This document shows positions 22,927 through 31,986 of a DNA stretch of 37,721 nucleotides, piece after piece (the stretch's first letter is position 1; every line of letters begins with the position of its first letter). The position numbers and the translations under genes are program-made. The stretch comes from Pirellulales bacterium (lineage in GTDB: Bacteria; Planctomycetota; Planctomycetia; Pirellulales; JADZDJ01). The stretch spans positions 1-37,721 of the forward strand of contig DASRSD010000071.1 in assembly GCA_035656635.1 (NCBI GenBank), given 5' to 3'. Below the pieces are notes generated by a model. That model searched no databases. It was given only the letters and a program-made list of their open reading frames with translations, and was not told where the DNA came from.

Positions 22927-25900
22927 TCAGCAAATCTTAATTGTCTGATTGATCTGGTTTCGCTGTGGCTTTTGCATCTTCGAACGCCTGACGCACGCTA
23001 GGCTGCACAGCCCACACAAGCCGAGCAAGGTAATGCTGGCGGGCTCTGGAACCACGCTTTGGCTGCCTCCCCCGGAAATCAGAAGATTAATGAGTGCCTG
23101 AACATCAATGTTGGTGGTCTTGCCGTCGCCATTAATATCCATGACGTCCGCAAGATCGAAGGAGTCCAAGCTTGGTTTACTTGCTTCGTACGCGGCCAAA
23201 TTGGTGAGGGCACCTTCCAAAACCGGAATATCGGCTGCATCGACGTGGCCATCCTGGTTGAGATCTCCACGCAACAGCGTGGTGGTCGTGGCCGGCACAA
23301 TTTCACTGTTGCTACCATTCGCAACGAGAATGGCGCCGGTTAAGTAACCTGTAAAGTGAATTTGATTCAGCTGGCTGGTAAGGCCGGTCAGTGTGGCGCC
23401 GTCGTTGGCAATGAGAATTTGATCGGTACCGCTGCCCCCGCCACTGCCGGGATTACCGGTCCAATCGCTGATTCTCAATACACCCGACCAGCTTTGAGTA
23501 TGACTATCGGCCAAGGTAAGCTGCGTGCCGGTTTTACTGGGATCCACATCAAGCGTGGAATTGGACAACACACGCAGGGTGGTATTCGTCATAGTTTGGC
23601 TATTGCCGCCCAGGGCCAGCGTACCGCCATTTAGCACTAGGCTGGAGGTATTTGTGATCGCATTGCCTGCAGCCAAGGTTAGCTTCGCGCCCGAATTGAT
23701 GGTGGTGGCGCCGGTGTATGTGCTACTGCCGGATAAAGTTAAATTTCCGCTATTCACTTGCAGCGCCAGCGTGTTGGTGCCGCCGCTTTGCAGCGACCCG
23801 TTAAACGTGCTGGGGCTAGCTGTTGAACCGGCGTAAATAACCGTGGAATTTGATGTGCCGTTATTAATAATCGCGGGCGAATCCGATCCGACGTTGGTCA
23901 AACTGCTCACCGTAATGCTATGGCCGTTAAGATCTAATGTGGGTGAGTCATTGTTTGTGTCGCCCATCGTCAAGGCGGTGTTTGTCGGCAAGCTAGCGGC
24001 AGCGCCCAAAATTAGCGTGCCATTTTGAATGTTGGTGGCGCCGGTGTAGTGTACCGTGCCCGCCAAGGTCAGTGTCGAAGGCCCAGCGTAAGTGAAGTTG
24101 CCCGTGGTGTTGATGTTGCCATTCAACGTGGACGTGCCCGACGAGCCCAAATTCACGTTACCGGTGGTGTTACTGCTCGTGAACGACAAATTGCTGGCAT
24201 AGCCATTAAATTGCAAAGTGCCGCCATTGAATTGAATACCGCCAACGCCGTTATTAATTGCGGCGTCAGAATTGATTCCAAGAATTCCACCTTGGAGGAT
24301 GGTTCCCCCCTGATACATATTCGAGTTGGCCAACGTGGTTTGCGTTCCAGCACCCGTTTGCGTAACCGTTCCAGTGCCAAAAATCACGCCATTTATACCC
24401 AAGAAACCCGAACTGAAGACGAGCGAACCGTTGTCAGTAATGGTCGTGTTGCCTAGACCTGCGCTATTTGCACTCGCGCCATTGCCCAGTTGCAGGGTGG
24501 CGCTGGGCTTAACGAGCGTCGCACCGCTGTAGCTGCTGCTCGATGTTAAAACCAGCGTCCCGCTACTAACCGTCAGGGCTGTCGTTTGACCGAAGCCACC
24601 GTTGACGCTGTCCTGGATGCTGCCGTTAAAAACATTAGGATTGTTGTTGGGCGCAGCATAGGTTAAGGTAACGCTCAGGGTGTTGCTGCTACTGCCAATC
24701 GTGCCTGAGCTTGTGCCCGCGGTGGTTAAGCCGGTTACCGTGATGCTTTTTCCGGCCAGATCTAACGTGCCAGATTCGTTGGCCGCATCTCCAAAAGCCA
24801 GGGGGGTACTCGTGGGAAAGGCTCCTGCAGAGCCTAATACGAGCGTGCCATTCTGGACGGTCGTTGTTCCCTGATAGTTGTTTGTTCCCGTGAGCGTAAT
24901 AGTGGCGTTCCCGCGAACGCTGAGCCCGCCCACGCCGGTAATGTTGTGAGCCAGCGTAATGGTGTTTCCGTTGCTGTCGACCGTGCCGCCCCCCGCGTTC
25001 AAGGTGATTCCCAGCGAGGAAACGTCGTCCGCGATATCTCCCGTGGGATACTGTACGGCACCCCCATCAAAGGTTAACGGCCCGGTGCCCAGGCTGGCCA
25101 ATGCGGCAAATTGCAATGTGCCGCCGTTAAAGTGCGTGCCGCCGGAATAATTATTGGACGCATTGCCCAACACAATTAACCCCGGGCCGGTTTTGGTAAT
25201 GGAGCTACCGGAAACGCTTTGAGTAATGGCCCCGTTCAAATTCAGCGTCGCTGTTGCATTTGCATCGCTCAACGTCAGGCCACCTTGCAAGGCGATCGTG
25301 CTGGCCACCGTGGAAGTGGTCCCTGCGCCGGAATTGTCGTTGATGATTGCGCTGTCGCTCGCTTGAATTGGCCGGGCGATGTTGCCGGTGTTGCCAAAAA
25401 ACTGCAGCGTAGCGCCGGAATTCACCGTGATGTTATCGCTTCCATCGTTGGCGACTACCGTGGAACCATTGAGCTCCAAAATTCCCTGATTGATGGCGAT
25501 ATTCCCTGCACTCACCGTGGCGTTGGTGATGGAAAACTGATTAGTGCCGGTTTTCGTCAGCGTAAATCCCGCGAGATTTAAGGTTGGTGTTCCACCGCGA
25601 ATGTCAAAGCGGCCGGTACCGCCGACACTGGCATTGTTGGACAAAGTGACGTTTTCATAAGCGTTCTGCTGCGAAACCGTACTGGAGTTGGTCAATGCGC
25701 CGGTGCTATTCACGCCAGTGCCGGCGATTGTGACCGGCGTGGCACCAAAGCCATTGGTCACATTGGCCTGCACGTATCCGCCAATATCTAGCGCACCGCC
25801 GGCGGCAATCGTAATCGATGTGGGCGTGCCCAAGGCATTGAAACTAGTGAGCCCCGTCGTGGCGGGATTCCCAACTTGGACCGTGCCGGAATTGATGGCC

Positions 25901-28900
25901 ACCGGTCCGGCGAATGTGCTGTTTGCGGCGAGGACCAATGTTCCGTTGCCGTTTTTGGTGATGCCGACACTGGCAGTGTTCTCGGTAATTGGGCCGCCGA
26001 TGGTTAAAGTGCCGGCAATGATGTTAAAAGTCCGAACGCTGCCGGTGGTCGTCGACGAAACGGCGCCGGTGCCCAGGTTCAAATCGTTGGGACCGTTGAA
26101 GGTAATATCGGCCGTCCAAGTTTGCGTTGGGTTGTTGGTGAGAGAGACCAACTGACCGCTGGTATTGCCCAGCGTGCCGCCGCTGATCGTCAAAGTGCCG
26201 GTGCCCAAAGCAGTATTGTTGTTGACATTCAATAAGCCTGCTTGCAAGAACGTTCCACCGGAGTACGTGTTGCTGGTGGCGATGGTCACGGTGCCCGTGC
26301 CGCTTTTCGTTAAACTGGCAGTGCCCACAATCGATCCGCCGCCAGAGATGGTAAAATCGCTGGAGTTCCCATTGCCCGTGGTATTGGTAAATACAACGGA
26401 TTGCGGAGCCAGCGAGCTTCCCAAGGAGACCGATACGCTAGGAGTGCTGGCGACATCAGCAAAAGTTACATTATCGTTGTTGAAATACAAATTCGGGTTT
26501 GAAGATGCGGTACTCGTCCAATTTGCGGTGTTGTGCAAATCCCAAGTGGTGCCGTCGGCTGCTCCGGTCCAGGTCAAGTTCGCTGGAGGGCCGGTCAAGT
26601 CGATCACGATGCTCGTGGCGCTGGTGTTGGTTAAGCTGTAGGAACTGGAGTCGTAGGAAAACGTTGTTCGGGTATCACCAGCATTCACCAGAGTAGGTAC
26701 AGTGCCCGTAATCGGGCTGCTGGATGTTAGCACGGTGTATGTGCCGACATTGGCGGCACCCGCCGGAGTAATTGTGGAAGCTCCGTTGAAAGCCACCGCG
26801 CCTTGAACGGTAAGAACGTCGCTGGAAGCTCCGCTAAAGTCGAACTGCAACGCGGCGCCTGAATTGACGGTCAGGCTGCTGACCGTCAAAGTGCCAATGG
26901 TAGCGGCTCCTGATGCGCCTGGATTGATGACAGCCTTATTCGAGCCAGTGTTCGTGAACAAAGTTACCGCGCCCACCGTGCCTGTACCAGCTAAGGTTCC
27001 AGCACTCGTTGCCGAGGTGTTCACGTTCACAACACCACTGCTGTTTAGTGTACCTGTTACAGCCAGTGTGCCACCGTTGATGTTTGTCGGACCGCTATAG
27101 TTGTTCGATCCGGATAATGTTTGAATACCTTTGCCGATTTTCGTAATCGCAGTGGTTCCACCACCGTCGTTAATTGCGCCGGCAAAGGAAGCAGATTGGT
27201 CGTTATTGCCGACGGTCAATGTCGGCGTGGTTGATGCCAATAGGTTTTCAATGATGATCGTTCCAGTAACCCCGGCGCCAGACGACAAACCATTCACCGT
27301 ATCGCTATTTCCGTTCAGGTCTAACGTGATCGGCGAGACATCGAGTGTTGTCGCATTGTTGGCGCCAAAAATCAGATTCCCGAATCCAGGACCGTCGGGA
27401 ATAACATTACTGGCGCCCAGGTGGACCATGGTATTGGTGCCCGAGCCTGGGCTAACAATTGTTGTATTTCCGTGATAATTGTTGTTTGTGTTGCTAATGG
27501 TGAGGTTGGTATCGATGCCGGTATTGCCCGAGCCGAAGTCGATACCGTAACCGGCCCCGTTGTCGGTAATCTGTCCACTAATCACGTTTGCGTTGGCTAG
27601 TGCAGTTCCGTTGCCACCCGCGCTGCTACTGCCGCCAATGCGCGCGTTCCCGGTAAGAATAATTGCCATTCCCGCAGTTGCTCCGGTTGCCGGGCCAGTC
27701 AAATTGACGCGGTTACTTGGAAATCGAATGGCGCCCAATGCTTCCTGTGAATCGCCATCGCCGGCAATAAAAAAAGTGTTGGAGACAGGATTAATGGTGC
27801 TGCTCGAGAAGGCAGCACCAAACAGGTAGGCATACGCGCCGGGAAAGATAAAGACCGGGCCCGTGCCGAAGCCGTTGGGATTGGCGCCGGTTACATTCGT
27901 TCCGCCCGGCTCAGTACCGGAGAGCTGAAGACGCCCATCAAGGATGTACGTTCCTCCCGAATAACTGCTGTGGCCGTCGATTTTTGCGGCGCCTGGACCT
28001 GATTTCACGAGAGTAACCGCGCCACCGGAAACCGAGCCGCCAGCGTTGTTATCTACAATTTTGGATTCCAGAATTAGCGAGCCACTGGTTTCGCTGGTGT
28101 TATCAATGATCAGGTCAATTTCACCTGGGATGCCGGCGACCGGCCCGCCGGCGGTGATCGAACCGGCGTCTTGCGATTGTCCATTGCCGGTTTGATTGGT
28201 GCCATTTGCCAACCCACCAATAAACCAAGAACTGCTGACAGTATCTTGCTTAAAGATTGCGCCGGTTTGCCCTAGCACTAGCGTGTTGCCGGTGCCGATC
28301 GACAGTTGATAGATCGTCGCGGCAGCAATCCCGGTACTGTTAAAAGAAATACTGTTTAAATACGTGGTGCTGTTGGCGTGTTCCGCATCGACGTTCACGT
28401 TGCCGTTGGTATTGGCGTTAATTTTGAGATTTGTGGTCGGGCCCAAGGCGCCGCCTGGACCGCCAGTAATTGTGGCGCCGTGGATATTTGCGTTGGGAAT
28501 GGTTCCGCCAGTGTCGGTACCGATCACCGCGCCGCCGAAATCCGTGTACCCTGCATAAGCTACGATGTTGCCGCCACTGACGGTTGCAAAATTGGTCCCC
28601 TCAGTCACATTCTGCGCCACCGTTCCCACGCCCGGCGAAGTCGTTGGACTGATCGTCGCCCAACCTCCGATGATTCCGTTCACGTTGCTGCTGCTGGTTC
28701 TGATACCGTTGGTGGCCGATTGCGTTCCGCTGGGCAGCACGAAAGCGGCAACACCTCCTGCCGTATGTGTCAGGGCGCCAAGGTTGAGTACCGTTCCAGA
28801 ACCGCCATTGTTGTTGACCGCAATGATGCCAGGGCCAACCGTCACGTTCGTGTTATTGAACGACTGCGAATTGCTTCCGGTCGTTTTTCCCGTGACCAAT

Positions 28901-29889
28901 AGCTCGTCGTAACTACTCTGCGCAAAACCTGCATTCGCTCCACCTAGCGTTAATGTCGAATTGCTGTTGACAATGTTGTTGGAGTTTGCCGCCAAGCCGG
29001 TAAAATCAAGCGTCATTTGGCCATTAGCCACATCGGTAGCGCCCGTGTAGGTGTTTAGCCCGCCCAGAACAATCGTCCCAAAGCTGGTTTTGGTGAGGCC
29101 GGCGTTGGAGCCGTTATCGGAAATCACGCCTGCATAAGTCACCGTTTGGCCACTGGCAACATTAAACGTAGCTGCTGGCGGGGTAGCGCCGCCGGCATTC
29201 AAAATCGCGATGCCCCGGCTGGAGTTAATGCTGAAATTCGCGCCGCTGGTGGAAAGAATTGAGCCGCCATTCAGGACGAGCGATCCCGCTCCGGTATCGT
29301 TCCCCAGGTTGCCGTCGGAAGTGATGGCCAGCGTGGCGCCATTGCCGACGTTGACCGGGCCTGTAAACGAATTCGTTCCGGACAGCGTTAACACGCCGGC
29401 TCCCGTTTCGCTGCCAGTCTGATTAAACACCACGTTCAAGCCGTCGCCACTGCCGGAAATATTGCCGCTCAACATTAGTTGGGTATTGTTGGTTAACGAA
29501 ATTGTCGGCGTCGACAATAAGAGGAGATTCAACGCCACCGTGTCGGTGTAAGATTGCGAGCTATCGGTAATAAATCCGTTCAAATCAATGGCGTTGCCGT
29601 TCACGGTGAAGTTGGCAGTGGCCGTGGCGTCAAAAATTATTCCATCAAAGAGGGTATTTGCGGCGAAATTGTTGTTCGGGTTCGGGCGAGCATTGCCTTG
29701 GAACAAAAGAATATCGCCCGGCGTAGGCGCAGCGCCGGAAAGCCAATTTTGCGATGTTTTGAAATTATTGTCGCCGCCGTTGCCAACCCAGGTATCCGTG
29801 GCGGCCTGAATAGATGCCGGCGTTACCACGGCGAAAATCACCACAATCGAGAGACAAATGGTAGTTACAGTCACAAAGGATCGACGCAT
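22927..29889 (-). CDS. Giant secreted repeat protein: PATR-type beta repeats, dockerin-like domain, PEP-CTERM signal
   Basis: A surface or exported protein of 2320 residues. Signal peptide RRSFVTVTTICLSIVVIFAV then IQA|ATDTW. Most of the chain consists of autotransporter-associated beta-strand repeats of the type GTLVLxxxNxYxGxTxVxxG, predicted to form a long beta-helix. A WxGxG...W..NW cap is seen twice, near residue 35 (DTWVGNGGDNNFKTSQNW) and near 1105 (LTWTGAADGTTWDLHNTANW), so the protein looks like two repeat arrays joined. The C-terminus has two Ca-binding dockerin-like loops, GDLNQDGHVDAADI and MDINGDGKTTNIDVQ (about 2205-2270). A PEP-CTERM sorting signal follows: VPEPAS near 2280, a short hydrophobic helix and RRSK. 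An unusual 16-residue tail trails the basic end. I chose the ATG at 29889 because AAAGGGAG precedes it; another ATG lies at 29910. There is no beta-barrel domain, so it is not a true autotransporter. Confidence 0.88.
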   Translation of the reverse strand: MRRSFVTVTTICLSIVVIFAVVTPASIQAATDTWVGNGGDNNFKTSQNWLSGAAPTPGDILLFQGNARPNPNNNFAANTLFDGIIFDATATANFTVNGNAIDLNGFITDSSQSYTDTVALNLLLLSTPTISLTNNTQLMLSGNISGSGDGLNVVFNQTGSETGAGVLTLSGTNSFTGPVNVGNGATLAITSDGNLGNDTGAGSLVLNGGSILSTSGANFSINSSRGIAILNAGGATPPAATFNVASGQTVTYAGVISDNGSNAGLTKTSFGTIVLGGLNTYTGATDVANGQMTLDFTGLAANSNNIVNSNSTLTLGGANAGFAQSSYDELLVTGKTTGSNSQSFNNTNVTVGPGIIAVNNNGGSGTVLNLGALTHTAGGVAAFVLPSGTQSATNGIRTSSSNVNGIIGGWATISPTTSPGVGTVAQNVTEGTNFATVSGGNIVAYAGYTDFGGAVIGTDTGGTIPNANIHGATITGGPGGALGPTTNLKINANTNGNVNVDAEHANSTTYLNSISFNSTGIAAATIYQLSIGTGNTLVLGQTGAIFKQDTVSSSWFIGGLANGTNQTGNGQSQDAGSITAGGPVAGIPGEIDLIIDNTSETSGSLILESKIVDNNAGGSVSGGAVTLVKSGPGAAKIDGHSSYSGGTYILDGRLQLSGTEPGGTNVTGANPNGFGTGPVFIFPGAYAYLFGAAFSSSTINPVSNTFFIAGDGDSQEALGAIRFPSNRVNLTGPATGATAGMAIILTGNARIGGSSSAGGNGTALANANVISGQITDNGAGYGIDFGSGNTGIDTNLTISNTNNNYHGNTTIVSPGSGTNTMVHLGASNVIPDGPGFGNLIFGANNATTLDVSPITLDLNGNSDTVNGLSSGAGVTGTIIIENLLASTTPTLTVGNNDQSASFAGAINDGGGTTAITKIGKGIQTLSGSNNYSGPTNINGGTLAVTGTLNSSGVVNVNTSATSAGTLAGTGTVGAVTLFTNTGSNKAVINPGASGAATIGTLTVSSLTVNSGAALQFDFSGASSDVLTVQGAVAFNGASTITPAGAANVGTYTVLTSSSPITGTVPTLVNAGDTRTTFSYDSSSYSLTNTSATSIVIDLTGPPANLTWTGAADGTTWDLHNTANWTSTASSNPNLYFNNDNVTFADVASTPSVSVSLGSSLAPQSVVFTNTTGNGNSSDFTISGGGSIVGTASLTKSGTGTVTIATSNTYSGGTFLQAGLLNVNNNTALGTGTLTISGGTLGNTSGQLVSLTNNPTQTWTADITFNGPNDLNLGTGAVSSTTTGSVRTFNIIAGTLTIGGPITENTASVGITKNGNGTLVLAANSTFAGPVAINSGTVQVGNPATTGLTSFNALGTPTSITIAAGGALDIGGYVQANVTNGFGATPVTIAGTGVNSTGALTNSSTVSQQNAYENVTLSNNASVGGTGRFDIRGGTPTLNLAGFTLTKTGTNQFSITNATVSAGNIAINQGILELNGSTVVANDGSDNITVNSGATLQFFGNTGNIARPIQASDSAIINDNSGAGTTSTVASTIALQGGLTLSDANATATLNLNGAITQSVSGSSITKTGPGLIVLGNASNNYSGGTHFNGGTLQFAALASLGTGPLTFDGGAVQYPTGDIADDVSSLGITLNAGGGTVDSNGNTITLAHNITGVGGLSVRGNATITLTGTNNYQGTTTVQNGTLVLGSAGAFPTSTPLAFGDAANESGTLDLAGKSITVTGLTTAGTSSGTIGSSSNTLSVTLTYAAPNNNPNVFNGSIQDSVNGGFGQTTALTVSSGTLVLTSSSSYSGATLVKPSATLQLGNGASANSAGLGNTTITDNGSLVFSSGFLGINGVIFGTGTVTQTGAGTQTTLANSNMYQGGTILQGGILGINSDAAINNGVGGIQFNGGTLQFNGYASNLSFTSSNTTGNVNLGSSGTSTLNGNINTTGNFTYAGPSTLTLAGTVHYTGATNIQNGTLILGAAASLPTNTALTMGDTNNDSPTLDLNGHSITVSSLTNVGSDSPAIINNGTSNSTVIYAGSTASPSTFNGSLQSGGTNTLALQVNSGNLTLSGSSTYTGATTINSGAKLTLAAGNAITNTSSLVLNGGTLALGGNSQTMTNTTLRVLSNSTLDVDPSKTGTQLTLADSHTQSWSGVLRISDWTGNPGSGGGSGTDQILIANDGATLTGLTSQLNQIHFTGYLTGAILVANGSNSEIVPATTTTLLRGDLNQDGHVDAADIPVLEGALTNLAAYEASKPSLDSFDLADVMDINGDGKTTNIDVQALINLLISGGGSQSVVPEPASITLLGLCGLCSLACVRRSKMQKPQRNQINQTIKIC
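23660..24870 (-). repeat. Long internal duplication in the giant repeat gene
   Basis: Two segments of about 115-120 residues, coded near 24870-24480 and 24035-23660, align from end to end. One reads GTLVLGSAGAFPTSTPLAFG, then TLDLAGKSITVTGLT and VFNGSIQDS; the other GTLILGAAASLPTNTALTMG, then TLDLNGHSITVSSLTN and TFNGSLQSG. This points to repeat growth by duplication of several beta coils at a time, on top of the short PATR unit. Confidence 0.6.
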
Positions 29890-30634
29890 GATTCGGCTCC
29901 CTTTCCGCATGATTGAGCAACGATGAATATCTGTGCTTCCTCGGTATGGGCATTAGCAGCATTTCGATCGCTGCAATTTGCTCGAAAATCCCCCCACAGT
30001 GTTCGAAGATGTTTTCGAGTGCCTCCCCGTAACGGTAAAAGATTCGTTGGAAGTAACCTGTTTTGAACTTGATTCGCGCATGTTGGCCGGACTTCATGAA
30101 CGGCGCACGGCATTCTCAAACGCTGCCGCATCAATCGGCAGCAAGCGACCAGCGGCACTCAGACCCCCACCCAGCGCAGCCTGAGATTTGCAAATCTCAC
30201 TCAGGCATACGCAACGAACCTTATCCCCTAATACAGCAATGCCTTAGGATGCCGTTTCACCCTTGAACTGGCGAGTGCAGAAAATCGCTCCGTAAGTAGT
30301 CGTACAAACTGAAAAGTCTTTACGAAGGAATTTCCACAGAAATTAGAAATATTTGCCTGCGTTCCGACCCTCCGATCCCAAATCGCGAGCTTCGTGCCGC
30401 AAGATTTCAGACGGCGCCTCCAGGGGAAGGCGGGCTCGGGGGGATCGCAGGACCGTTATGGGCAGCTCCGTTATGGGCGGCCACGTAGAGTGCGCAGCAG
30501 GCAGAACGCCCGAGAGCCAAAATGGTGGCGTGCGAGGTGGCGCCGCCAGCGGCAACAGACTGTTGCCAATCGTTGTGAAGTGCGTTGCTGCAAATGTCTA
30601 AGTCGACAAGAAAACGGGGGGGCGATCGAACGGA
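29890..30634. other. Gene-free upstream region of the giant gene, with palindromes
   Basis: About 740 bases between two minus-strand genes. Open frames here disagree and carry no motif. A perfect 16-base palindrome GAGATTTGCAAATCTC lies at 30183-30198, flanked by CCT and ACTCAGG that extend it imperfectly. CCGTTATGGGC is repeated directly at 30453-30463 and 30468-30478. The giant gene's promoter should lie in the left part, but I find no convincing -35/-10 pair. Confidence 0.4.
30183..30198. promoter_or_regulatory. Perfect 16-base palindrome, possible operator
   Basis: GAGATTTG|CAAATCTC is exactly self-complementary, about 290 bases upstream of the giant surface-protein gene. It could bind a dimeric regulator or fold as a hairpin within the longer imperfect CCTGAG...CTCAGG arms. 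Confidence 0.4.
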
Positions 30635-31044: not shown

Positions 31045-31374
31045 TTAACGGCGACCGTAGCCGCCCCGGCCACCACCACCACCGCCGCCGCCATAACCAC
31101 CCCGTCCGCCGCCGCCGCTACGTTCTTCGCGCGGCCGGGCTTCGTTCACCGTAAGTGGACGACCATCGTGCGGTTGATCGTTTAGGCCACGAATTGCTTC
31201 TTGTGCGGCATTATCGTCGCTCATTTCGACGAAGCCAAAACCCTTGCTGCGTCCAGTGTCGCGGTCCATGACCACCTGTGCGCTTTGAACCGCTCCAAAC
31301 TGAGCAAACAATTCTTCCAGACTTTCGTTGGTGACATTGTAGCTCAAATTACCGACATACAAACGTTTACCCAC
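31045..31374 (-). CDS. RRM-domain RNA-binding protein with Gly-rich tail
   Basis: A single RNA recognition motif followed by a glycine/arginine/tyrosine tail, as in bacterial cold-responsive Rbp proteins. With the start I choose, RNP2 is LYVGNL (5-10) and RNP1 is KGFGFVEM (44-51); the tail (about 85-109) reads GGGGRGGYGGGG then GRGGYGRR. Start: the sequence AATGAGGAGCGTCGTCGTGG has an ATG at 31389, but GAGGAG is an ideal ribosome site seven bases before the GTG at 31374, which gives the typical N-terminus MGKRLYVGNLSY (109 residues). A long AT-poor leader (to about 31540) may hold cold-response structure; a TATACT lies at 31539-31534 on this strand. Confidence 0.92.
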   Translation of the reverse strand: MGKRLYVGNLSYNVTNESLEELFAQFGAVQSAQVVMDRDTGRSKGFGFVEMSDDNAAQEAIRGLNDQPHDGRPLTVNEARPREERSGGGGRGGYGGGGGGGGRGGYGRR

Positions 31375-31563
31375 GACGACGCTCCTCATTGACAGTAGTT
31401 AACCCAACGACACGAATGCCATTTAGGTCGAAAAAAGGGCAGAATGGCGGCCCGCCAAGTAGCAGAGGCGAAGAACGGGCAGCGGGCTAAGAAGCCGAAT
31501 GCCACTAATTGCGTCGTCAAAGCAACTGCAAGCAGTATAGCGAATGCAAGGCATTCTTGGTAG

Positions 31564-31584: not shown

Positions 31585-31651
31585 CGCAAGAAAGACGGCA
31601 ATGGCTGGCAATCAACCTGCGTTCAGTGCCCGGCCGGCATTGCATTTTTCG

Positions 31652-31665
31652 AATTAGGCGACGAC
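31652..31665 (+). repeat. Solitary copy of AATTAGGCGACGAC
   Basis: The 14-base word AATTAGGCGACGAC equals the terminal repeat of the palindromic element at 31755-31877. It could be the remaining end of a second, decayed copy. Confidence 0.6.
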
Positions 31666-31754
31666 GCGACGACCAAAACAGGCGGAGTATAGGCTACGTA
31701 ATTGCCTCCACCATTGGAATTAGGAGGCGGCGTTCGCCAACGTCCAAACTTTGG

Positions 31755-31877
31755 GGTCGTCGCCTAATTTGAAGAAATGTAGCGGCGTCTGTCCCTAGAC
31801 GCCGGCGGTTTTCTCGAACAAAAACGGCTGAGGACAGCCGTCGCTACATCGCTGAGCGGCCAAATTAGGCGACGACC
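31755..31877. repeat. 123-base nested palindromic element (MITE- or REP-like)
   Basis: Perfect 16-base inverted ends, GGTCGTCGCCTAATTT (31755-31770) and AAATTAGGCGACGACC (31862-31877). Inside, ATGTAGCGGCGTCTGTC (31777-31793) pairs with GACAGCCGTCGCTACAT (31833-31849) at 15 of 17 positions. A further local hairpin GGCGTCT-GTCCCT-AGACGCC lies at 31784-31803. Nothing is coded. It lies between the RRM gene and the beta-propeller gene. No clear target duplication flanks it. Confidence 0.75.
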
Positions 31878-31986
31878 AATTTTGGACAATAGCAGACAGG
31901 AAAGCGGTTTTGCATTACGATTTTCTATTTACCGGCGGCGAAAGACCAATCGCCAAAACCACTAAATTCCACTCCGGAGAACGACA

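What the first reader, a model, noticed from the sequence alone, without database searches (positions are those of the whole stretch)
22927..29889. Giant surface protein seems to be two capped repeat arrays joined
The WxGxG...W..NW cap that normally begins such proteins appears near residue 35 and again near residue 1105, each followed by about 1,100 residues of beta-repeats. This suggests fusion of two genes or duplication of a whole module.
Basis: partly seen in the sequence, partly recalled or inferred. Interest (0 to 1): 0.58.

Follow-up and report, generated by a model that had tools for sequence, protein, structure and literature searches.

The report
Two capped beta-helices in one protein
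A very large bacterial surface protein appears to be built from two separately capped beta-helical rods joined end to end, and the joint, an autotransporter-type end piece plus a fresh start cap, recurs in many related giant proteins, which suggests a standard way of building such proteins from prefabricated segments.

Summary
The gene (window 22927-29910, minus strand; likelier start 29889) encodes about 2,320 residues: signal peptide, cap 1 (38-118), array 1, cap 2 (1111-1204), array 2, dockerin, PEP-CTERM-like tail. Cap 2 is a real cap but of another subfamily: profiles built from other genomes give cap 2 68 bits (cap 1 only 4) and cap 1 60 bits (cap 2 only 3). The two subfamilies are remotely homologous (profile-profile 96.7%, shuffled maximum 1.5%). 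Array 2 ends differently. The halves are not close copies, so whole-module duplication is not supported. Terminators next to caps lie mostly apart from C-terminal ones, and terminator and following cap vary together, so the joint looks like an old, heritable cassette rather than a recent fusion. Seven of 20 cap-bearing frames here have two or three caps. Likely mechanism (inferred): each unit folds as its own beta-helix, sealed or nucleated by its end modules. New variant of a known kind.

The parts
22927..29910 (-). giant surface-protein gene, 2327 aa from the first ATG; likelier start at 29889 (2320 aa)
   Evidence: AAGGGAG before the second ATG read by eye
29803..29889 (-). signal peptide (residues 8-36), cut inferred after ...ASIQA so that the mature protein would begin with cap 1
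   Evidence: sequence; hydropathy maximum 2.75 at residue 13; no signal-peptide predictor was run
29557..29799 (-). cap 1, N-type (residues 38-118)
   Evidence: hold-out profile 60.2 bits; AF2 pLDDT 91-98 in the first twelve blocks of ten modelled residues
27022..29556 (-). array 1 of unit 1 (residues 119-963) with 4 PATR places
26629..27021 (-). terminator T of unit 1 (residues 964-1094), autochaperone-like; the structural match runs to about residue 1108
   Evidence: hold-out profile 69.9 bits, best of 500 shuffles 10.9; VIA-align Z 14.7 to 7jvi, 13.6 to IgA1 protease 845-989, 11.8 to IcsA autochaperone region; terminator profile to Ssp 8e7f 473-610, E 2e-11
26299..26580 (-). cap 2, B-type (residues 1111-1204), the internal restart cap
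   Evidence: hold-out profile 68.4 bits against 3.9 for cap 1; tree branch separating B from N, SH-aLRT 98
23686..26298 (-). array 2 of unit 2 (residues 1205-2075); 7 PATR places counted for unit 2, the first overlapping the cap's end
23275..23685 (-). second-type array end of unit 2 (residues 2076-2212), not the T type
   Evidence: phmmer finds it in 9 other ORFs at 18 bits or more, by eye mostly with a dockerin-like stretch soon after; T profiles give at most 1.9 bits outside 964-1094
23080..23268 (-). dockerin type I domain (residues 2215-2277), two EF-hand-like loops
   Evidence: PF00404 30.4 bits, cut-off 22.9
22984..23052 (-). PEP-CTERM-like tail (VPEP, hydrophobic stretch, RR; residues 2287-2309)
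   Evidence: PF07589 17.1 bits, below its cut-off of 20.7; one exosortase match in the genome

Best explanation
The protein is a chain of two self-contained right-handed beta-helices. Unit 1 is laid out like an autotransporter passenger: N-cap, PATR array, autochaperone-like terminator. In place of the usual beta-barrel or membrane anchor a fresh cap of another subfamily (B-type) follows and starts a second helix, which ends in a different end module, a dockerin and a PEP-CTERM-like anchor. Shown by computation: two cap subfamilies, the terminator fold, their adjacency and the recurrence of the terminator-cap joint. Inferred: (1) the protein leaves by the Sec route and is handled by the exosortase; (2) cap and terminator seal the open ends of each helix so that the units do not merge or aggregate; (3) the terminator also nucleates folding of its own unit, as autochaperone regions do in autotransporters but here without a barrel; (4) the terminator-cap joint is inherited as one cassette while the array after it is exchanged or diverges fast, which lets these bacteria lengthen surface proteins unit by unit. 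The biological role of the finished rod (adhesion, cell-surface coat) is not shown.
For: Hold-out profiles for both caps and the terminator. AF2 of residues 960-1314, pLDDT 81.8, pTM 0.74. Of 50 PDB rows re-aligned by VIA-align, 7 end at model residue 147-149 (autotransporter passenger ends and 7jvi) and 26 begin at 148-165, so the break mostly falls between terminator and cap. Terminator profile matches Ssp 8e7f at 473-610; the paper, whose PDB code is 8E7F, says Ssp's last three rungs resemble an autochaperone domain (PMC9977779, passages). Distance from terminator match to next B-cap match at most 9 residues in 50 of 62 cases (the window's is 17). In this genome, among 23 terminators of 25 bits or more in frames of 400 aa or more, 10 precede a B-cap (the window's included), 1 an N-cap, 8 lie near the C-terminus, 4 other, one of these in the genome's only PF03797 autotransporter match. 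A B-cap also starts a single-array protein after its N-terminus (L013). Terminators before caps cluster on the tree (6 changes against a shuffled mean of 22.9, 0 of 500). Terminator and B-cap co-vary across the unit border (partial Mantel 0.37, 0 of 2000 permutations), B-cap and its own following array do not (-0.01).
Against: Foldseek alone gave no PDB match with E below 0.07; the Z-scores come from re-alignment of Foldseek's own list. Of the 50 rows, 12 begin at 112-122, 4 begin at 1-92 and run across the break, 1 begins at 193. No autochaperone or pertactin Pfam family matches the terminators well (PF03212 in 1 of 33 at E 0.035). AU test does not reject cap 1 and cap 2 as sisters (p 0.168). 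Proteins outside this genome were chosen for cap or joint matches, so frequencies there are biased. Clustering of joint terminators may partly reflect kinship: four of the window terminator's five nearest rows are from its own genome. The arrays before and after the joint also co-vary in the full set (0.21, p 0.0015), though not within the order (0.06, p 0.22), so some lineage effect remains; contact between terminator and cap could also explain their co-variation. PEP-CTERM is below cut-off and this gene is not among the 35 TIGR02595 matches of the genome. The folding role has no experimental support here.
Confidence: 0.65

Rival explanations
1. Tandem duplication of a whole capped module inside one gene (one of the reader's two options).
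For: Both halves have a cap of the same superfamily and similar length; sisterhood of the two caps is not rejected (p 0.168).
Against: No phmmer match between the halves at 1e-3, 41 bits by blastp, against 189 bits of unit 2 to a protein of another family. Different cap subfamilies (branch 98) and different end modules. Over 184 units of 77 multi-unit frames the best match is a sibling in 14, another protein in 162, none in 8 (the set holds near-orthologues, which inflates the 162, and counts uncapped leading stretches as units).
Confidence: 0.06
2. Fusion of two complete neighbouring genes by loss of a stop codon.
For: An apparent case exists in this genome: L002 carries an internal PEP-CTERM and a second signal-peptide-like stretch, and a same-genus protein has the same layout.
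Against: The window's joint has no hydrophobic remnant (17-residue hydropathy at most 0.73 for starts between 1060 and 1140, against 2.75 at the N-terminus and 2.1 at the C-terminus). Its terminator groups with terminators that precede caps, and its cap is nearest to other internal B-caps.
Confidence: 0.15
3. The second W-rich segment is just a tryptophan-containing rung, a chance match, and the protein is one continuous solenoid.
For: Plain pairwise alignment of the two segments is at chance level.
Against: Cap 2 scores 68.4 bits with a profile from other genomes, best of 500 shuffles 6.6. A terminator precedes it, and the pair recurs at short spacing.
Confidence: 0.03
4. Assembly chimera: two repeat genes wrongly joined in a draft assembly.
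For: The genome is in 190 contigs and repeat genes do break contigs (L001 and L020 end in the same kind of unit, 77% DNA identity over 648 bases).
Against: The same joint occurs ten times in this genome, the window's included, and in 19 of 33 named loci from other assemblies that were fetched by a cap and joint query; the frame is open throughout and GC is even, 0.53-0.56.
Confidence: 0.04

Closest known systems
PATR / autotransporter-associated beta-strand repeat proteins (PF12951, TIGR02601)
   Same: 12 PATR and 11 TIGR02601 stretches; beta-helix of the same kind
   Different: Two arrays, each with its own start cap and end module; dockerin and PEP-CTERM-like tail instead of a beta-barrel
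Classical (type Va) autotransporters, e.g. IcsA, IgA1 protease, Ssp
   Same: Unit 1 has a passenger layout ending in an autochaperone-like region; a protein of this genome (L008) has N-cap, terminator and PF03797 barrel
   Different: No PF03797 barrel in this protein; the terminator lies in the middle and is followed by another cap
PEP-CTERM/exosortase surface proteins (Haft 2006, PMC1569441, seen in a search listing and as a reference only)
   Same: Signal peptide, C-terminal VPEP plus hydrophobic stretch plus RR; exosortase match in the genome
   Different: PF07589 score below its cut-off
Planctomycete giant genes over 5 kb (Fuerstia paper, PMC5177795, abstract and passages)
   Same: 6.98 kb gene, presumed surface protein
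   Different: The paper's main text has 0 occurrences of autotransporter, PEP-CTERM and beta-helix

Membership tests
PATR beta-strand repeat protein | PF12951 repeats above the curated cut-off | tested here: met
   146.8 bits, 12 stretches, cut-off 27
Type Va autotransporter | C-terminal PF03797 beta-barrel | tested here: not met
   no match in the protein at E up to 1; the one PF03797 match listed for the genome is on another contig
Type Va autotransporter | passenger ending in an autochaperone-like region | tested here: met
   residues about 963-1108: Z 11.8 to IcsA autochaperone region, 130 aligned, rmsd 3.1; profile of 33 terminators to Ssp E 2e-11
Autochaperone region (function) | drives folding and secretion of its own passenger | not testable with these tools
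   needs expression and refolding assays
PEP-CTERM/exosortase substrate | C-terminal PEP motif, hydrophobic stretch, basic end | tested here: inconclusive
   all three visible in the sequence, but PF07589 17.1 bits under its cut-off 20.7; not among the 35 TIGR02595 matches listed
PEP-CTERM/exosortase substrate | exosortase in the same genome | tested here: met
   PF09721 144.2 bits on contig 81
Dockerin type I protein | PF00404 above cut-off | tested here: met
   30.4 bits, cut-off 22.9
Cellulosome-type dockerin partner | cohesin in the genome | tested here: not met
   no PF00963 match in the genome; genome 95.6% complete
Protein made by duplication of one module | the two halves are each other's close relatives | tested here: not met

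The most novel reading that the evidence does not exclude
The terminator plus B-cap joint is a dedicated building cassette of PVC-group bacteria: an autotransporter-type autochaperone, freed from its barrel and placed inside a protein, ends one beta-helix while the attached cap starts the next. Giant surface proteins are thereby assembled from independently folding helices, whose number changes by gain or loss of cassettes.
Probability: 0.4. Interest if true: 0.66.

Novelty: new variant of a known kind. Interest (0 to 1): 0.5.

Why it matters
[quoted passage not shown] A recognisable joint of end module plus start cap gives a rule for cutting such proteins into folding units that can be expressed and solved one by one, and for counting units across genomes. 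It also bears on what autochaperone regions do when no barrel is present: this protein has one in its middle. Neither the caps nor the terminators match a Pfam family in more than 2 of the members scanned (19, 9 and 33), best E 0.0084, 0.15 and 0.012.

Tried and rejected
No full-length orthologue was seen: in 57 genomes, own included, the 241-residue joint matched in 13 at E up to 1e-3; outside this genome identity was at most 57%, and above 46% only in stretches of about 50 residues. In the one same-genus genome the place next to the orthologous neighbour gene holds a 766-aa frame that looks like recG (recall), not the giant gene; the contig ends about 2.8 kb further on, and the neighbour on the other side had no match. 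Pfam scans of caps and terminators: only scattered weak matches. phmmer of the protein against PDB sequences: nothing at 0.01. The cap 1 model gave general beta-helix matches, Z 11.7 and lower, and no Foldseek match below E 0.3.

Literature searches, full text: no paper with both 'autochaperone' and 'PEP-CTERM'; none with 'autotransporter-associated beta strand repeat' and Planctomycetes, 2 with the first term alone (listing only); none for 3 of 4 terms autotransporter, Planctomycetes, beta-strand repeat, giant. One search gave 3 papers, one, one, four, ten, two; of these I read passages of PMC9977779, PMC4960237, PMC8111173 (not used) and PMC5177795, the rest only in listings. Most subscription papers are not in the library, so absence there shows little.

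The tree of 118 caps needs 2 changes between N and B (rows under 35 bits, or under 45 outside this genome, were dropped; its clade test did not finish); the 75-cap tree (rows under 50 bits, or under 62 outside this genome, dropped) needs 1. The stretch of 150 residues before the terminator may hold some of the terminator's own first rungs, which would raise the pre-T value.

One search was an incomplete second attempt.

Full report
What was checked. The finding lies on the minus strand in one open frame of 2327 codons, 22927-29910. Residue numbers below count from 29910. The window is contig 71 of a 4.9 Mb draft genome, 190 contigs, 95.6% complete. The tools give it no name; the named loci fetched with the joint are from Verrucomicrobiota and Planctomycetota, among them Pirellulales, and I take the genome for a planctomycete by inference.

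Domains. Pfam finds 12 PATR stretches, a dockerin (2215-2277) and a sub-threshold PEP-CTERM; NCBIfam finds 11 beta-strand repeats. Neither W-rich segment has a Pfam match of its own. For the genome the tools list 91 PATR matches, one exosortase, one autotransporter barrel, 35 PEP-CTERM matches by TIGR02595 without this gene and no cohesin.

The two caps. Plain alignment of the two W-rich segments is at chance level (274 of 2000 shuffles reach the score). I collected frames around the PATR matches of this genome and saw two kinds of cap: an N-type mostly after signal peptides and a B-type mostly inside proteins. Profiles built only from other genomes (82 B rows, 27 N rows) give cap 2 68.4 bits and cap 1 3.9 bits with B, cap 1 60.2 and cap 2 2.7 bits with N; best of 500 shuffled copies 6.6 and 9.0. 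So each cap is clear, and they belong to different subfamilies. The subfamilies are related: profile-profile probability 96.7 over 76 columns against at most 1.5 for 60 column-shuffles (with the first, smaller alignments 88.2). In a tree of 75 caps one branch with SH-aLRT 98 parts N from B; the AU test of cap 1 and cap 2 as sisters gives p 0.168, not a rejection.

The terminator. Residues 960-1314 were modelled with an alignment of 17 rows (pLDDT 81.8, pTM 0.74). Model residues 1-149 align with the C-terminal parts of autotransporter passengers: IgA1 protease 845-989 Z 13.6, IcsA autochaperone region Z 11.8 (130 aligned, chain of 156), EspC, SepA, EspP and Ag43 Z 9.9-10.9, and with a metagenomic beta-helix domain, 7jvi, Z 14.7. 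Of the 50 rows, those 7 end at 147-149; 26 begin at 148-165; 12 begin at 112-122; 4 begin at 1-92 and run across; 1 begins at 193. Foldseek itself had no match below E 0.07. Independently of structure, a profile of 33 terminators matches the solved Ssp passenger (8e7f) at 473-610 of 618, E 2e-11; its authors say that the last three rungs resemble an autochaperone domain (PMC9977779, passages). A terminator profile without own-genome rows gives 69.9 bits at 965-1094 and at most 0.5 elsewhere in the protein (1.9 with the profile that lacks only the window). Array 2 ends in another module (2076-2212) that phmmer finds in nine other frames at 18 bits or more, by eye mostly with a dockerin-like stretch soon after it.

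How common. Among the frames collected here around PATR matches, 20 of 400 aa or more carry at least one cap at 25 bits; 7 have two or three, some frames being cut by contig ends. Of 23 terminators at 25 bits or more in such frames, 10 precede a B-cap, 1 an N-cap, 8 lie near the C-terminus, and 4 are other: L002's before dockerin and an internal PEP-CTERM, L008's before the barrel, L013's before a proline-rich stretch, and L010's before a cap-like stretch under threshold (one terminator in a 244-aa frame and one of 22 bits were not counted). Of 14 B-caps at 30 bits or more, 10 follow a terminator, 2 are internal without one (both in L002), 1 is N-terminal and 1 lies at a contig edge; of 12 N-caps, 9 are N-terminal, 2 internal without a terminator, 1 after one. 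Outside this genome, in loci chosen for cap or joint matches, 45 of 83 B-caps follow a terminator, 33 are internal without one, 5 N-terminal; of 40 N-caps 15 are N-terminal, 19 internal without one, 6 after one, so the N-type is not confined to N-termini. Over the whole set the distance from terminator to next B-cap is at most 9 residues in 50 of 62 cases, and 19 of 33 named loci have the joint. In 57 genomes, own included, the B profile matches in 11, the N profile in 38.

Duplication or fusion. Unit 1 and unit 2 do not find each other by phmmer at 1e-3; blastp gives 41 bits. Unit 2 finds a protein with at least three caps from another family of the order at 189 bits over 609 residues, and stretches of L001, L007 and others. 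Among 184 units of 77 multi-unit frames the best match is in the same protein for 14, elsewhere for 162, nowhere for 8 (near-orthologues inflate the 162). The third unit of L020 and the last of L001 are 50% identical over 767 columns although the proteins' other units have other best matches, which suggests that units move between proteins. There is no hydrophobic remnant at the window's joint. Terminators before caps (50 of 78) need 6 changes on the terminator tree (shuffled mean 22.9, 0 of 500); the window's lies in a starred set of 9, all of this kind, but four of its five nearest are from its own genome, so kinship plays a part. Terminator and B-cap similarity co-vary with flanks and composition held constant (0.37, 0 of 2000; 0.44 within the order), about as strongly as terminator and the array before it (0.42; 0.44); B-cap and its following array do not (-0.01; 0.11, p 0.086). 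The two flanking arrays co-vary in the full set (0.21, p 0.0015), not within the order (0.06, p 0.22).

Reading. The simplest account is a modular protein of two capped helices. Unit 1 resembles an autotransporter passenger; the genome's only PF03797 match, L008, has the order N-cap, terminator, then barrel. The joint seems to be an old cassette rather than a fresh fusion or a duplication. That terminators seal and nucleate the helices is inferred from autochaperone regions of autotransporters (recalled, and stated in passages of PMC9977779). The rod's function on the cell is unknown; adhesion or a surface coat is a guess.

Limits. Loci outside this genome were picked for cap or joint matches. 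Cap trees rest on 92 columns. No coordinates of the models could be inspected, so whether the two helices are coaxial or hinged is open.

Noticed in passing
L002:2948-8026 (G000 contig 145) and L099:3533-8461 (same-genus genome): One open frame seems to hold two complete secreted proteins: B-cap, terminator, dockerin, PEP-CTERM, then a second signal-peptide-like stretch and a polysaccharide-lyase half with B-cap, terminator, dockerin and a PEP motif. 80% identical over 1587 columns in the two species. Possibly a polyprotein cut by exosortase and signal peptidase.
   Followed up: partly
L008:3407-7093 (G000 contig 3): The only PF03797 autotransporter match listed for this genome; it shares N-cap and terminator with the PEP-CTERM proteins.
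   Followed up: partly
L001:1-3000 and L020:1-2400: Two giant genes break off at contig ends inside the same kind of unit (50% protein identity over 767 columns; 77% DNA identity over 648 bases), although their other units have other best matches.
   Followed up: partly
L093:700-7650: Internal PEP-CTERM-like stretch at residue 857 followed by an N-cap at 907: perhaps another whole-gene fusion.
   Followed up: no
window 31045-31389, minus: Small frame that reads by eye as a glycine-rich RNA-binding (RRM) protein; not searched.
   Followed up: no
window 31650-31880: The string AATTAGGCGACGAC or its reverse complement occurs several times in the intergenic stretch (by eye).
   Followed up: no
window 22927-29910 compared with L119:5824-8124: In the same-genus genome a 766-aa frame that looks like recG (recall) lies next to the orthologous neighbour gene where the window has the giant gene, so the gene's place seems not conserved.
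   Followed up: partly
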